Positions 20,081 to 33,992 of a stretch of 38,310 nucleotides of DNA are shown piece after piece. Every line of letters starts with the position of its first letter. Positions within the stretch are counted from its first letter, which is position 1. Both the position numbers and the translations under genes were made by a program. The notes under the pieces were generated by a model, which searched no databases, was not told the DNA's origin, and saw nothing but the letters and a program-made list of their open reading frames with translations. The stretch is from Caldifarciminota bacterium (GTDB lineage Bacteria; Hydrothermota; Hydrothermia; WGAB01), in assembly GCA_027069855.1 (NCBI GenBank), contig JALXEF010000149.1:1-38310 (forward strand), given 5' to 3'.

Positions 20081-20166
20081 GCCGGAGTGGCGGAACGGCA
20101 GACGCGGCGGATTCAAAATCCGCTGGGGGCAACCCCGTGAGGGTTCAAATCCCTCCTCCGGCACCA
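20081..20166 (+). tRNA. tRNA-Leu (anticodon CAA), CCA encoded
   Basis: GCCGGAG...CTCCGGC acceptor pairing, D-stem GCG/CGC, anticodon stem GCGGA-TTCAAAA-TCCGC, long variable arm, T-loop GGTTCAAATCC, terminal ACCA. Confidence 0.96.
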
Positions 20167-23499: not shown

Positions 23500-23572
23500 G
23501 CCAGGGTAGCTCAGTTGGTAGAGCACGGGACTGAAAATCCCGGTGTCCGCGGTTCGATTCCGCGCCCTGGCA
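23500..23572 (+). tRNA. tRNA-Phe (anticodon GAA), CCA not encoded
   Basis: 73 nt; GCCAGGG/CCCTGGC acceptor, GCTC/GAGC D-stem, CGGGA-CTGAAAA-TCCCG anticodon arm, CGCGG-TTCGATT-CCGCG T-arm, discriminator A followed by CTTTC rather than CCA. Confidence 0.96.
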
Positions 23573-23584
23573 CTTTCTTTTTCT

Positions 23585-24688: not shown

Positions 24689-26218
24689 ATGGAACTTACG
24701 GTACGCCTGGTGGCCGCCACGCCCCGCCCCCTGGACACGATCGCCGCCGCCGCCCGTACCTGCTACTCCTCCAGGGGCCTGGTGCTGCCCGAGGCGGTGA
24801 CCGGCCCGCGCCACAACCCCCGCCACGAACAGAAACGCCAGCGCCGCAACCGACTGGTGCAGGATCTGTATCGCTCGGGCCACCACACCACCATCCAGCA
24901 TGTGCAGTTCCAGTTCGCCCTGAGCGGCGTATCCCGGCTCCTGGTGTGGAGCCTGCTCCACGACCACCCCTTTTACAACTCCGAGCAGGTGAGCCAGCGC
25001 TATGTGGAGGTGCAGCCCGAGAACATGGCGTTGCCGCCGGACCTGCCGGCCGGTTTCCACAACGCCTACGGCGAGGTGCTGGACTTCCTGATCGGGCGAT
25101 ACCGCGACCTCTCGGCCCTGCTGGAGCCCGTGGCCCGGGCCGAGCTCCAGAAACGGTTCCCCCACCGCGATTTTCAACAAAAACGCTGGGCCCATCAGGT
25201 GAAAACCCGCGCCTGGGAGGTGGCCCGGTATGTGCTGCCCCTGGCCACCCAGGCGTATCTTCACCACACGATCTCGGCAGTGACCCTGCTCCGGTACCAC
25301 CGTACTGCACTCCTCGGCGACGCTCCCGCCGAGGCCCGGCAGGTGGTACAGGCCATGGTGCAGGCCGTGCTGGAGCAGGAACCGGAGTTCGCCCTGCTGC
25401 TGGAAGACCCTTTGCCCCGCACCGGCCCGCCGCCCGGCGAACCCCTCCTCCGGGAATCCGAAGCCCGGCAGTTTGATACCGCCCTGGAGGGGCTCCAGAG
25501 CCGTCTGGTCAACCCCAACCCGGCCCTGGAAACCCTGCTGGCCGATGCCTACCGCACCGCCACCGGCCGCCCGACTTTGCCCCAGGACGAGGCCCTGGCC
25601 GAAATGCTGGATCCCGCCCGCAACCCTCTTCTGGCCGAGCCCCTGAACCTCACCTATCACCTGAAGGCCACCCAGCCCCTGCACCACGCCTGCTGGACCT
25701 TCCAGAAGAAACTCAGCCACACCGCCGACTCCCAGGATCAGCGACACCGGATGACCCCCGGCTCCCGGCCGCGCCTGCGGCTCCCCGAGTTCCCCGACTA
25801 CCTTACCCCCGCCCTGGTGCAACAGGACCCCCGGGCCGAAGCCCTGTACCACGACACGCTGCAGGAACTCTGGGATCGCCTGCTCCGGCTCCATCGGCAG
25901 GGCCTGCGCCCGGCCCACCTCCTGTATCTTTTACCCAACGCCGTGGCCGTGCGCTTTTACGAGAGTTTCAGCCTGCTGGCCTTCCGCCACAAGGTGGCCA
26001 TGCGCCTGTGCTACAACGCCCAGGAGGAGATCTGGCGGGTGACCCTGCAGGAAGTTCAACAGATCGCCCGGGTGAACCCCGGCATCGCCCGGTACCTGGG
26101 GCCTCCGTGCCGGCTGCGGCAGCGGGCCGGCAAAACCCCCTTCTGCCCGGAGGGTAGCCGCTACTGCGGGGTGCCGGTGTGGCAACTTCCTCTGGAACAG
26201 TTTGAGCGCGTGCTATGA
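24689..26218 (+). CDS. tandem (two-domain) ThyX-like FAD-dependent thymidylate synthase family protein
   Basis: 509 aa; N-half AAARTCYSS...SGHHTTIQHVQFQFALSGVSRLLVWSLLHDHPFYNSEQVSQRYVE and AWEVARYVLPLATQAYLHHTISAVTLLRYHR; C-half LHHACWTFQKKLSHTADSQDQRHRM and LLYLLPNAVAVRFYESFSLLAFRHKVAMRLCYNAQEEIWRV, each resembling ThyX. Confidence 0.78.
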   Translation: MELTVRLVAATPRPLDTIAAAARTCYSSRGLVLPEAVTGPRHNPRHEQKRQRRNRLVQDLYRSGHHTTIQHVQFQFALSGVSRLLVWSLLHDHPFYNSEQVSQRYVEVQPENMALPPDLPAGFHNAYGEVLDFLIGRYRDLSALLEPVARAELQKRFPHRDFQQKRWAHQVKTRAWEVARYVLPLATQAYLHHTISAVTLLRYHRTALLGDAPAEARQVVQAMVQAVLEQEPEFALLLEDPLPRTGPPPGEPLLRESEARQFDTALEGLQSRLVNPNPALETLLADAYRTATGRPTLPQDEALAEMLDPARNPLLAEPLNLTYHLKATQPLHHACWTFQKKLSHTADSQDQRHRMTPGSRPRLRLPEFPDYLTPALVQQDPRAEALYHDTLQELWDRLLRLHRQGLRPAHLLYLLPNAVAVRFYESFSLLAFRHKVAMRLCYNAQEEIWRVTLQEVQQIARVNPGIARYLGPPCRLRQRAGKTPFCPEGSRYCGVPVWQLPLEQFERVL

Positions 26219-28402: not shown

Positions 28403-29593
28403 TTATGCCGGCCGCACCAGCTGGCGGAACACCTCTGCCACCTCGGCGTAAGGGGCCGTGGTTTTGAAGCCCGTGCCGTGGAAATGGGTGCGGCGAGCGG
28501 CGTATCCGCGTTGCCTTAGCGCCTCCAACACCTCCGCCAGGGGAGGCTGGGACAGGTCCAGCCGGTCGGCCACGGCCGTGGTGGTATAGAAGAAGGGAGG
28601 CAGGCCCACTTCCTCCCGCATCCGGCGAATCACCCGGAAAAAGCGGCGCGACAGGGTGCCGAGGTTTCGGCCGGCCGTTTCCATGGCCTCCAGGAACCCG
28701 GGGTGATGCAGGTCCCAGAGCCACAGCGGGCCGGCCACCCAGGCCTCCTCCCCACACCGGGGGCACCGATTGCACAGGTCCTTGCCCGAAAAGGGCACCG
28801 ACCACACCGTGTGGCAGGCCGGGCAAATCCCGAGAAACCCCTCGCTCCGGGGGTCCAGATCGTAGCGGCCGTGGATCGTGAAGAAAAAGCCCCGGAGGGC
28901 ATAGCCGTCAAACAGGGTGAACAGGGGGATCACCCGGAACTTCCGGCGGGCGCCGGCCCGCACCACAGTGCGTACGAACACCCGGGCCCCGGTTTCATGG
29001 CAGAATTCGGTTTGCACCGTGAGAGCCGCATAGTGGTTGAAGGCGCTCCGGCGATCAATGCCGCAGAGGGCGGCGAGGTCCGTGGCCGTGATGTACAGGA
29101 AGCCGCCGTCGCGCACGGCGTGGAAGGCCGAGTCCAGGAAGGGCACGGGCGAGCCGAAGGCATCCAGGTCCAGCACATGGGGAAACAGTTCCTCCAGTTT
29201 CAGCGTGTAGTGGAAGTTGTTGGCCTCCATGTGGTAGAACCGGATCCGGCGGTCCAGGCCCAGCCGTGCGGCGTTGTGGCGGGCGGTTTCCAGGGCCGGG
29301 GTGCTGATATCGTTGAGCAGGGCCTCGGCCACGCCGCCCACCTCCAGGAAATAGCGGAGCGACCGGATGCCGGTGCCGGCGAAGGTTTCGGCCACCACCA
29401 GGGGTTCGGGCACCGGCAGGCGATAGAGCTCGGCGCCCTGGGGGGTGGTAAAGGTCAGGCGGGCCTGCTGCAGGGCTGCGATAGCGGCCACGCCGAAATC
29501 CCGGGCCAGGCGCCCCCGTTCCCGGAGAAAGACCTCCGGGTGCAGGAGTTCCACGGTCACGCGGCCTTCGTGGTATGTGGGATGGTGCTCCAC
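28403..29593 (-). CDS. trm1: tRNA (guanine-N2)-dimethyltransferase Trm1
   Basis: 396 aa; VAETFAGTGIRSLRYFLE, LDLDAFGSPVPFLDSAFHAVRDGGFLYITATDLAALCG, GPLWLWDLHHPGFLEAM, C4 zinc-like CPAC...CNRCPRC, KTTAPYAEV. Confidence 0.9.
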   Translation of the reverse strand: MEHHPTYHEGRVTVELLHPEVFLRERGRLARDFGVAAIAALQQARLTFTTPQGAELYRLPVPEPLVVAETFAGTGIRSLRYFLEVGGVAEALLNDISTPALETARHNAARLGLDRRIRFYHMEANNFHYTLKLEELFPHVLDLDAFGSPVPFLDSAFHAVRDGGFLYITATDLAALCGIDRRSAFNHYAALTVQTEFCHETGARVFVRTVVRAGARRKFRVIPLFTLFDGYALRGFFFTIHGRYDLDPRSEGFLGICPACHTVWSVPFSGKDLCNRCPRCGEEAWVAGPLWLWDLHHPGFLEAMETAGRNLGTLSRRFFRVIRRMREEVGLPPFFYTTTAVADRLDLSQPPLAEVLEALRQRGYAARRTHFHGTGFKTTAPYAEVAEVFRQLVRPA

Positions 29594-29599
29594 GGAGCC

Positions 29600-29863
29600 T
29601 CAGCGGATCTCGGTTACCCGGTCCAGGTGTTCCTGGGCCTCCCGGTAATCGGGCCGGAGCGAAAGGGCCTTTTCAAAGTAGGCCTTGGCCTCGTCGCGGC
29701 GGTTCCGGATCTCCGCGATCAACCCGAGAAGATAAAACCCCTCGGCCGAGGTCGGATCCTGTTGAACCAGCTGTTTCAGGATCCGCTCGGCCTCGTCCAG
29801 GTTTCGGTTCAAAAAGTAGAACTTGGCTTCTTCCAGAAGCTGGTGAGACTCAGTCTTCTCCAT
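29600..29863 (-). CDS. small TPR-repeat protein
   Basis: 87 aa; AKFYFLNRNLDEAERILKQLVQQDPTSAEGFYLLGLIAEIRNRRDEAKAYFEKALSLRPDYREA. Confidence 0.82.
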   Translation of the reverse strand: MEKTESHQLLEEAKFYFLNRNLDEAERILKQLVQQDPTSAEGFYLLGLIAEIRNRRDEAKAYFEKALSLRPDYREAQEHLDRVTEIR

Positions 29864-30545
29864 GGGCCTTCCTCAGCTTTTCAATGTCTTCGTTGGATCC
29901 CAGAACCACCAGGATATCGCCCTCGTGGATCTCCTCCTCGGGCGTGGGCGATACGATGGTCACCTCCTTGAAGTCCAGGGTGCCTTCGGCCTCTTTGAGT
30001 TCGGGCATCTTGCGGCGGATGGCGATGACTGTGACGCCGAACCGGTTGCGGATCCGGAGGTCCTTCAGGGTTTTGCCGGCGAACTCCTCCGGTGCCGCGA
30101 TCTCCACAATGGAAAACCCGGGGGTGAGTTCCAGGTAGTCGAACACCATCGGAGAGGCCAGGGATCGGGCCACACGCTGGCCCATGTCGCGCTCCGGGAA
30201 CACCACCCGATCGGCCCCCACCTTGCGGAGAATCTTGGCATGGATGGTACTCAGGGCCTTGGCCAGCACCCGGGGCACCCCCATCTCCTTCAAGAGCACC
30301 GTAATCAGGATGGAGGACTCCAGGTCGCCGATGGCCACGATCACCCAGTCAAAATCCCGGAGCCCCAGGTTCTTGAGGGCCTTTTCCTGGGTGGCGTCCA
30401 GCACGAGGCCCTGGGTTACAAAGGGCTCTATCTCGGCCACCGGCTCCTCGTCCTGGTCCACGGCCAGCACCTCATGGCCCAGGTCGGCCAGGGTGCGGGC
30501 CACGGCCGAGCCGAAGCGTCCCAAGCCGATCACACAAAACTGCAT
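29850..30545 (-). CDS. ktrA: potassium uptake regulatory subunit KtrA/TrkA-like (RCK/TrkA-N, TrkA-C)
   Basis: 231 aa; MQFCVIGLGRFGSAVARTLADLGHEVLAVDQDEE..., C-terminal TrkA-C-like domain GDILVVLGSNEDIEKLR. Confidence 0.93.
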   Translation of the reverse strand: MQFCVIGLGRFGSAVARTLADLGHEVLAVDQDEEPVAEIEPFVTQGLVLDATQEKALKNLGLRDFDWVIVAIGDLESSILITVLLKEMGVPRVLAKALSTIHAKILRKVGADRVVFPERDMGQRVARSLASPMVFDYLELTPGFSIVEIAAPEEFAGKTLKDLRIRNRFGVTVIAIRRKMPELKEAEGTLDFKEVTIVSPTPEEEIHEGDILVVLGSNEDIEKLRKAHGED

Positions 30546-30548
30546 GGT

Positions 30549-31901
30549 TTACCCCACAATGTAACTGCCCTCTACATAGCGGACGGTTTGATGCTCCCGA
30601 CGAAAAACCCAGGCGGCCAGCGACAGCACGCCGATCCGCCCGATCAGCATGATGACAATCATAACCCCTTTGCCCAGCGTGGAAAAGTCAGCCGACAGGG
30701 AAACATTGGCCAGGTGCTGCGAGCCATAGGAGAGGCCCACGGTGCCGAAACCGGACACCACCTCAAAGAGCACGGGCAGGAACCCCACCTGCTGGATCAG
30801 GGCCCGTTCGGTCCAGGTGAGGATCCAGGTGCCCAGGAGGATCGTGGAGGCCGCCATGGTCACAATGATGAGGGACCGCTGCAGGGATTCCAGCGGCAAC
30901 GCATTGCCGAGGATCACGGGCTTTTCGTTGCCCCGGAGCCAGGCCCGCACCCACAGAAACAGGGCGGCGAAGGTGGTGGTTTTGATGCCGCCGGCCGTGC
31001 CGCCGGGCGACCCCCCGATGGTCATCAGCAAAAGCACCAGAAACACCGAAGGCACGCTGAAGGCCGACACATTCAGGGTGTTGAAGCCGGCGGTGCGGGG
31101 TGTGGCGGCCATGAAAAAGGCGTTCAGGATCTGGTAGAACCAGGGCAGAGAAGTCCGAAGGCCCTCGGCCAGAAAGAGCACAAAGGTACCTACGACGAGG
31201 AGCAGCAGGGTTATCCGAAGGACCACCCGGGTGTGGAGTTCCAGTTTCCGTTTGGCCCGTCGGACATAGCGGAAATAGAGGTCCTGCAGCACGAAGAATC
31301 CCAGCCCGCCGGTGATGAACAAGAAGGGCACCACCAGAAGCACCACCGGCTGCTGCGTAAAGGAGGCCAGATTGTCGGAGAAAGAAGAAAACCCGGCGTT
31401 GCAAAAGGCCGAAACACTGATGAACACCCCGTGGGCGGCGCTCATGGGCCATCCGAAGCCGTGGCGGTGAAAGGCCCAGGCCAGCAGCAGGGCGCCGCTC
31501 ACCTCAAAGGCCAGGGTGAGCTTCAGCACCCGCCGCACGAAGTGGCTGATCTGGCCCAAGGTGAGCTCGGGAAAGGATTCGGCCATGGTGAGCCGCAGCG
31601 TGAGGCTTCCTTTTCGTCGCAGCAGGAACAGGATGGTGGTGGCAAAGGTCATGTACCCGAGTCCCCCCAGCTGGATCAGGGTGAGGATCACCCCCTTGCC
31701 GAAGGCCGTGTAAAAGGTGGCGGTGTCCTTCACGATGAGCCCGGTGACACACAGGGCCGAGGTGGAGGTGTAGAGGGCGTCCACCGGGCTCAGGGTGCCG
31801 TGGTGGGCAAAGGGCAAAAGCAACAGCAACGCCCCGAAAAGGGAGATGCCTCCGTACCCCAGCACCAGCAGCGTGAGGGGATTCAGCCGCCTGAAATCCA
31901 C
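30549..31901 (-). CDS. ktrB: potassium uptake channel subunit KtrB/TrkH-like
   Basis: 450 aa; DALYTSTSALCVTGLIVKDT, SVSAFCNAGFSSFSDNL, RTAGFNTLNVSAF, GGSPGGTAGGIKTTT, FEVVSGFGTVGLSYG filter-like repeats. Confidence 0.94.
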   Translation of the reverse strand: MDFRRLNPLTLLVLGYGGISLFGALLLLLPFAHHGTLSPVDALYTSTSALCVTGLIVKDTATFYTAFGKGVILTLIQLGGLGYMTFATTILFLLRRKGSLTLRLTMAESFPELTLGQISHFVRRVLKLTLAFEVSGALLLAWAFHRHGFGWPMSAAHGVFISVSAFCNAGFSSFSDNLASFTQQPVVLLVVPFLFITGGLGFFVLQDLYFRYVRRAKRKLELHTRVVLRITLLLLVVGTFVLFLAEGLRTSLPWFYQILNAFFMAATPRTAGFNTLNVSAFSVPSVFLVLLLMTIGGSPGGTAGGIKTTTFAALFLWVRAWLRGNEKPVILGNALPLESLQRSLIIVTMAASTILLGTWILTWTERALIQQVGFLPVLFEVVSGFGTVGLSYGSQHLANVSLSADFSTLGKGVMIVIMLIGRIGVLSLAAWVFRREHQTVRYVEGSYIVG

Positions 31902-32896: not shown

Positions 32897-33992
32897 CTAC
32901 GCCTTTTCTTTGGCCTTGCGCTGCTTCAACTGCTGCAAAAGATAGGCCCGGATGAAGCCGTCCAGGTCGCCGTCCAGCACCGCGTCGGCGTTGCCCACCT
33001 CGTAGCCGGTACGGTGATCCTTCACCATCCGATAGGGGTGCAGCACATACGACCGGATCTGCCGACCCCAGGCGATTTCCCCCTTCTCCTGCTCAATGTC
33101 CTTGAGTTTCTCGCGCTCCTTCTGCTTGTAGTACTCGTACAGGCGGGCCCGCAGGATCTTCAGAGCGGTTTCCTTGTTCTGGTGCTGGGAGCGTTCCGAC
33201 TGGCAGGTGACCACGATGCCGGTGGGCAGGTGGGTGATCCGCACGGCGGTTTCGTTCTTCTGCATGTGCTGGCCGCCGGGCCCGGAGGACCGAAAGGTGT
33301 CGATCTTCAGTTCGTCGTCCCGGATTTCCACCTCCACCTCCTCGGTTTCCGGGTACACGAACACCGAGGCGAAGGAGGTGTGGCGCCGCCGCGAGGCGTC
33401 AAAGGGCGAGATGCGCACGAGCCGGTGCACGCCCCGTTCGGCCTTCAGGTAGCCGTAGGCATAGGGTCCCTCCACCAGCATGGTGACATCCTTGATGCCG
33501 GCCTCCTCGCCGGGCTGCAGGTTCAGCACCTTGTACTTGAACCCCTTGCGCTCAAACCAGCGGGTGTACATGCGGAAAAGCATCTCGGCCCAGTCCATGG
33601 ATTCGGTGCCCCCGGCGCCGGGATGAATGGAAACGATGGCGTTGCGCTGGTCTTCCTCGGTAAAGGTGATCCGGAGTTCCAGGTCGTTCAGGCGCTGTTC
33701 CAGGCGCCGGAACTCCCGTTCCACCTCGGGGGCCAGGCTTTCGTCCTCCTCGGCCAGTTCCTCCAGTTCCACGAGGTCCCGGAGTTCGCGCTCCAGGGTT
33801 TCCAATTCCTCCAGGTCCCTGCGGAGCGCCGCCATGCGCGCCATCACCCGGCGCGCCTCGGCCTGGTTCTGCCAGAAATCCGGCTTCCCCGAGGCTTCTT
33901 CTAAAGACTGGAGTTCCCGACGCAGCCGGTCGGGGTCAAAGATACCTCCTGATTTCCAGGAACCGCTGAAGCAGTTTCTCTGCGCGTGCCAT
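32897..33992 (-). CDS. prfB: peptide chain release factor 2, expressed by programmed +1 frameshift
   Basis: Main frame contains GAGGTESMDWAEML (GGQ-type region SSGPGGQHMQKNETAVRITHLPTG) and ends at 32897. Upstream minus-strand ORF ATG at 33992: MARAEKLLQRFLEIRRYL-TGA, with AGGAGGTATCTTTGAC at 33950-33935, then +1 frame DPDRLRRELQSLEEASGKPDFWQNQAEARRVMARMAALRRD joining the ORF-track frame. Confidence 0.95.

What the first reader, a model, noticed from the sequence alone, without database searches (positions are those of the whole stretch)
28403..29593. Trm1 tRNA dimethyltransferase in a bacterium
The ORF carries the Trm1 signature blocks and C-terminal zinc-type Cys motif. Established: Trm1 is typical of archaea and eukaryotes and rare in bacteria, with Aquifex aeolicus the known case (modifies G26 and also G27). 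Seen here: the window's tRNA-Leu has G26 and G27, while tRNA-Phe has A26, so only the former is a plausible substrate. It is coupled in position with ktrB-ktrA-TPR.
Basis: partly seen in the sequence, partly recalled or inferred. Interest (0 to 1): 0.6.

Follow-up and report, generated by a model that had tools for sequence, protein, structure and literature searches.

The report
Bacterial Trm1 tRNA guanine methyltransferase gene
This bacterium of the candidate phylum WOR-3/Hydrothermota really does carry Trm1, a tRNA-methylating enzyme usually linked to archaea and eukaryotes; it belongs to a bacterial branch of the family distinct from the one studied in Aquifex, so it is a modest but real extension of a known enzyme's range.

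Summary
In detail: window 28403-29593 (-) is a full-length Trm1 (Pfam TRM E=8e-73; AlphaFold pLDDT 94; best Foldseek hits are the Aquifex and Pyrococcus Trm1 crystal structures). It is the genome's only Trm1. The genome belongs to WOR-3/Hydrothermota. Trm1 is in 22 of 40 genomes of its class and in none of 107 in the phylum's other classes; a same-family genome keeps the order ktrB-ktrA-TPR-trm1, so it is not a contaminant. The tree joins Hydrothermota with Armatimonadota Trm1 (100/99), apart from archaeal plus Aquificota Trm1; a Hydrothermota-plus-Aquificota clade is rejected (AU p=0.0003), so Aquifex G26/G27 specificity cannot simply be carried over. Catalytic F, R, D, F and four Cys are kept, but motif IV is D-A-F instead of D-P-F and the N-terminal loop FLRE instead of FYNP. 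Most likely function: m2G/m2,2G at G26. A known enzyme in a poorly documented bacterial clade.

The parts
28403..29593 (-). trm1: tRNA (guanine-N2)-methyltransferase, Trm1 family, 396 aa; class I methyltransferase domain plus C-terminal Cys4 domain
   Evidence: Pfam TRM 8e-73; PDB 3axs/2dul by sequence and fold; AF2 pLDDT 94.0
29153..29170 (-). codons 142-147 (D-L-D-A-F-G): motif IV, D144-A145-F146 aligned with P. horikoshii D138-P139-F140
   Evidence: alignments
29519..29530 (-). codons 22-25 (F-L-R-E): F22 aligned with P. horikoshii F27; FYNP or FFNP in nearly all other Trm1
28754..28825 (-). codons 257-280, CxxC...CxxC zinc-type motif
   Evidence: Cys 257/260/277/280, all four kept in 10/18 Hydrothermota and 44/47 archaeal rows
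29600..29863 (-). TPR protein, 87 aa, upstream neighbour in the putative operon
   Evidence: Pfam TPR_2 6.9e-12; same place in L069, 65% identical
29850..30545 (-). KtrA/TrkA-type K+ uptake regulator
   Evidence: Pfam TrkA_N 2.2e-31, TrkA_C 1.1e-16; conserved in L069, 65%
30549..31901 (-). KtrB/TrkH-type K+ channel subunit
   Evidence: Pfam TrkH 9.1e-58; conserved in L069, 53%
20081..20166 (+). tRNA-Leu(CAA), G26 G27: candidate substrate
   Evidence: ARAGORN, position table
23500..23573 (+). tRNA-Phe(GAA), A26 C27: not a G26 substrate
   Evidence: ARAGORN, position table

Best explanation
The gene encodes a working Trm1-family enzyme that uses S-adenosylmethionine to put one or two methyl groups on the exocyclic N2 of guanine 26, at the hinge between D-stem and anticodon stem, of the roughly half of the cell's tRNAs that have G26. 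This would hinder misfolding and stiffen the tRNA core. It belongs to a bacterial Trm1 clade (Hydrothermota plus Armatimonadota) separate from the Aquifex/archaeal group; whether it also takes G27 is unknown. Shown: homology, fold, conserved catalytic residues, class-wide distribution, tRNA position table. Inferred: activity, target position, mono- versus dimethylation, structural role.
For: Full-length match to Trm1 by profile and, with the family alignment, to both solved Trm1 structures at E 1.5e-124 and 8e-115; AF2 model pLDDT 94, pTM 0.93 superposes on 3axs (TM 0.85/0.87) and 2dul (0.79/0.85), next best fold only TM 0.42; residues aligned with P. horikoshii F27, R36, D138, F140 are kept; gene present in 22/40 class genomes, including all sampled members of several families, without stops inside; 22/42 own tRNAs have G26.
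Against: Motif IV proline, invariant in 49/49 archaeal and Aquificota rows, is Ala here; FYNP is FLRE; TIGR00308 equivalog cut-off missed. G26 frequency is the same in a Trm1-less class-mate, so the tRNA set gives no independent sign of use. I found no biochemical data for any member of this clade.
Confidence: 0.75

Rival explanations
1. Multisite enzyme like Aquifex Trm1: methylates both G26 and G27, recognising the tRNA from the T-arm.
For: Best single PDB match is Aquifex Trm1; seven own tRNAs have G26G27 and six more have G27 without G26.
Against: Aquificota Trm1 falls with archaeal Trm1 and this one elsewhere; a Hydrothermota+Aquificota clade is rejected, p-AU 0.0003. Close fold says nothing about site choice; PMC4033218 stresses that sites are hard to predict from sequence.
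Confidence: 0.12
2. Neofunctionalised Trm1 relative: the D-A-F motif and changed N-terminal loop mark a different target base or position, or a switch to mono-methylation.
For: Pro of motif IV replaced by A/V/S in 10/18 Hydrothermota and 9/10 Armatimonadota rows, never in 49 archaeal/Aquificota rows; equivalog cut-off missed.
Against: Residues equivalent to Pyrococcus F27, R36, D138, F140 are kept; f8 relatives keep D-P-F inside the same clade.
Confidence: 0.1
3. Recent transfer or contaminant contig: the gene comes from an archaeon and is not part of the organism's own machinery.
For: Trm1 is mainly archaeal; within the phylum it is limited to one class.
Against: Same operon order in an independent genome at 53-65% protein identity; 18 Hydrothermota sequences group with Armatimonadota, not archaea; monophyly of the Hydrothermota rows is not rejected (p 0.25); GC3 of trm1 0.849 against 0.81-0.87 in most neighbours; no plasmid, phage or viral-contig relatives.
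Confidence: 0.02

Closest known systems
Aquifex aeolicus Trm1 (PDB 3axs/3axt; Awai et al. 2009, 2011)
   Same: Bacterial, same two-domain fold (TM 0.85), Cys4 motif, F27/R36/D138/F140-equivalent residues
   Different: 26% structural identity; Aquificota Trm1 falls with archaeal Trm1, not with this clade; Aquifex has FYNP, NRD and D-P-F, here FLRE, ARD and D-A-F; G27 activity shown only for Aquifex
Pyrococcus horikoshii/furiosus Trm1 (PDB 2dul, 2ejt, 2eju, 2ytz)
   Same: Fold and catalytic residues; makes m2G26/m2,2G26
   Different: Archaeal; the P. horikoshii sequence lacks the Cys4 pattern; motif IV D-P-F
   Same: Joined with Hydrothermota Trm1 at 100/99 support; nine of ten also have D-A-F
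   Different: About 33% identity to the window protein (HR15); FFNP or FYNP kept; activity unknown

Membership tests
Trm1 (tRNA guanine-26 N2-dimethyltransferase) family, PF02005 | Full-length profile match above the curated cut-off | tested here: met
   246.2 bits vs 27, residues 18-390
Trm1 (tRNA guanine-26 N2-dimethyltransferase) family, PF02005 | Class I methyltransferase domain plus Trm1-specific C-terminal domain fold | tested here: met
   AF2 pLDDT 94; Foldseek 3axs TM 0.85/0.87, 404 columns
Trm1 (tRNA guanine-26 N2-dimethyltransferase) family, PF02005 | Phe27, Arg36, Asp138, Phe140 (P. horikoshii numbering) in the active site | tested here: met
   F22, R31, D144, F146
Trm1 (tRNA guanine-26 N2-dimethyltransferase) family, PF02005 | Proline in motif IV (D-P-F/Y): a strong trend in characterised members, not an accepted defining feature | tested here: not met
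   D-A-F here; A/V/S in 10/18 Hydrothermota and A in 9/10 Armatimonadota rows. Membership is kept on fold, profile and the other catalytic residues
Trm1 (tRNA guanine-26 N2-dimethyltransferase) family, PF02005 | Makes m2G/m2,2G at position 26 | not testable with these tools
   Needs an enzyme assay or tRNA analysis; 22/42 tRNAs offer G26
NCBIfam TIGR00308 TRM1 equivalog | Score over the curated equivalog cut-off 280.65 | tested here: not met
   228.6 bits: not filed under this equivalog
Aquifex-type multisite Trm1 | Groups with Aquificota Trm1 | tested here: not met
   Hydrothermota+Aquificota clade rejected, p-AU 0.0003
Aquifex-type multisite Trm1 | Methylates G27 as well as G26 | not testable with these tools
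   No biochemical data

The most novel reading that the evidence does not exclude
Hydrothermota and Armatimonadota share a separate bacterial Trm1 lineage whose relaxed motif IV (D-A/V/S-F) and altered N-terminal loop go with a changed product or target, for example mono-methylation only or a site other than G26.
Probability: 0.12. Interest if true: 0.5.

Novelty: new member of a known kind. Interest (0 to 1): 0.3.

Why it matters
Reviews still treat Aquifex as the bacterial exception for Trm1 (PMC6313347). The genome survey shows a second bacterial lineage in the candidate phylum WOR-3/Hydrothermota and in Armatimonadota, which means m2,2G26 may occur in more bacteria than assumed, and offers a natural motif-IV variant for testing what the proline does in N2-guanine methylation.

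Tried and rejected
G26 as a signature of Trm1: rejected, G26 share is 52% (own), 53% (same-family, Trm1 present), 49% (class-mate, Trm1 absent). Ktr coupling as a general functional link: rejected beyond the family; no KtrA/KtrB/TPR hit beside trm1 in the other class loci, most of which have only 1.5 kb flanks; elsewhere in the class trm1 lies by other genes: GlcD and sigma-70, MnmE, radical-SAM/TRAM proteins, a release factor. Single-protein scan of named genomes found nothing and a 16-row alignment was too diverse to scan with; a 5-row alignment worked. Mobile origin: no relatives on plasmids, phages or viral contigs. 'Acidobacteria J001' as a third bacterial phylum: dropped, because its genome falls in the same GTDB phylum as the Aquificaceae one. 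Cyanobacterial and eukaryotic Trm1 could not be fetched for the tree.

Full report
What was claimed.

The gene. The ORF on the minus strand is 396 aa with a GTG start. Pfam TRM matches residues 18-390 at E=8e-73. The two solved Trm1 enzymes are the only PDB sequences found with the single protein: Aquifex aeolicus 3axs at 1.5e-42 and Pyrococcus horikoshii 2dul at 1.3e-38; with a 28-row family alignment they reach 1.5e-124 and 8e-115, and the next best is 1e-5. AlphaFold2 gives pLDDT 94 and pTM 0.93, and Foldseek returns 3axs (TM 0.85/0.87) and the 2dul group, then a drop to TM 0.42. There is no doubt about the family. NCBI's TRM1 equivalog cut-off is not reached (228.6 against 280.65), so automatic annotation may miss or hedge it.

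Active site. By the profile alignment, residues F22, R31, D144 and F146 correspond to F27, R36, D138 and F140 of P. horikoshii Trm1. From my own knowledge of the P. horikoshii structure paper (not held in the library), F27 and F140 line the methyl pocket and their alanine mutants are inactive. Four cysteines (257, 260, 277, 280) match the Cys4 motif. Two departures stand out. Motif IV is D-A-F; the middle residue is proline in 49 of 49 archaeal and Aquificota-type rows but A, V or S in 10 of 18 Hydrothermota rows and A in 9 of 10 Armatimonadota rows. The N-terminal FYNP is FLRE here and FFRE in the nearest relative, while other members of the class keep F-x-N-P.

Whose genome. The window is contig 149 of a 2.14 Mb, 178-contig genome. 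The organism is therefore a WOR-3/Hydrothermota bacterium. The exact class name was not told by the tools.

Distribution. Full-length or contig-cut Trm1 is in 22 of 40 genomes of the class and in none of 107 genomes of the other classes, where only short matches to a generic methyltransferase stretch appear (counts by me from the tables). It is present in every sampled member of families f1, f2, f5, f7 and f8 and absent from f3, f9, f10 and f11. Ten of 151 sampled Armatimonadota genomes have it. About half of sampled Aquificota do: 50 of 101 with long matches, my count. The tool's 14 control genomes include a match in Synechococcus elongatus. Reviews in the held library describe Aquifex as the exception among bacteria (PMC6313347; PMC4033218). 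I found no paper in the held library on Trm1 in WOR-3 or Armatimonadota, which is weak evidence of absence.

Phylogeny. A careful 77-row tree splits Hydrothermota plus Armatimonadota (28 rows, 100/99) from archaea plus the Aquificota-type sequences (49 rows). The window protein pairs with G001 (100/100) and sits in a seven-row Hydrothermota clade (97/92). Holding all Hydrothermota together is not rejected (p-AU 0.25). Joining Hydrothermota with the two Aquificota rows without Armatimonadota is rejected (p-AU 0.0003), but a joint Hydrothermota+Armatimonadota+Aquificota side is not (p-AU 0.156). So a single old bacterial Trm1 group is not excluded; what is excluded is that this gene is a simple sister of the Aquifex one. 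With four more Aquificota sequences the picture is unchanged. The sequence titled Acidobacteria J001 belongs to the same GTDB phylum as the Aquificaceae genome. Branches are long, and cyanobacterial and eukaryotic sequences are missing.

Substrates. I tabulated all 42 tRNAs found: 22 have G26, 19 A26, one U26; seven have G26 and G27; six have G27 without G26. As a control I did the same for G001 (Trm1 present: 24 of 45 G26) and for G009, a class-mate without a full-length Trm1 (22 of 45). The share of G26 does not follow the enzyme in this small comparison, so it cannot be used as evidence for it; it only shows that substrates exist.

Neighbourhood. ktrB, ktrA, TPR and trm1 are packed with 3 nt, -14 nt and 6 nt between them, and the same order is found in G001 at 53-65% identity. 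This suggests one transcript in this family. In other families trm1 lies next to other genes, several of them for translation or tRNA modification: MnmE, radical-SAM/TRAM methylthiotransferase-like proteins, a release factor, also sigma-70 and GlcD. No functional link to potassium transport should be read into it. GC3 of trm1 (0.849) is like that of its neighbours.

Mechanism. Most likely SAM-dependent N2-methylation of G26 on G26-bearing tRNAs, once or twice. The chemistry and fold are carried over from homologues; the site and degree of methylation are inferred. Confidence 0.75. The Aquifex-like G26/G27 activity (0.12) and a changed target (0.1) are the rivals; a direct assay on three transcripts would decide.

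Verdict. Observation confirmed, interpretation partly supported; ordinary as an enzyme, mildly interesting as a member of a bacterial Trm1 clade with an unusual motif IV.

Noticed in passing
window 32897-33992 (-): Release factor 2 gene (prfB) with the classic programmed +1 frameshift: 18 codons from ATG at 33992, then AGGAGG-TAT-CTT-TGA-C near 33950-33935, followed in the +1 frame by the main ORF 32897-33847.
   Followed up: partly
window 24689-26218 (+): A 509-aa ThyX-type protein with two Pfam Thy1 stretches, about twice the usual length; the two halves are too diverged to align by BLASTP.
   Followed up: partly
L107 (RFFP01000014.1, 'Acidobacteria bacterium isolate J001'): The genome named Acidobacteria falls in the same GTDB phylum as an Aquificaceae genome; the public organism name looks wrong.
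   Followed up: partly
L278-L281 and other Aquificota genomes: Aquificota Trm1 comes in two score classes against Pfam TRM (about 490-400 and 365-300 bits); the six sequences checked form one clade in the tree.
   Followed up: no
L046, L045 (f8 genomes): A GlcD-like FAD oxidase sits next to trm1 in f8 genomes and also next to trm1 in the window (there convergent), perhaps a remnant of an older gene order.
   Followed up: no
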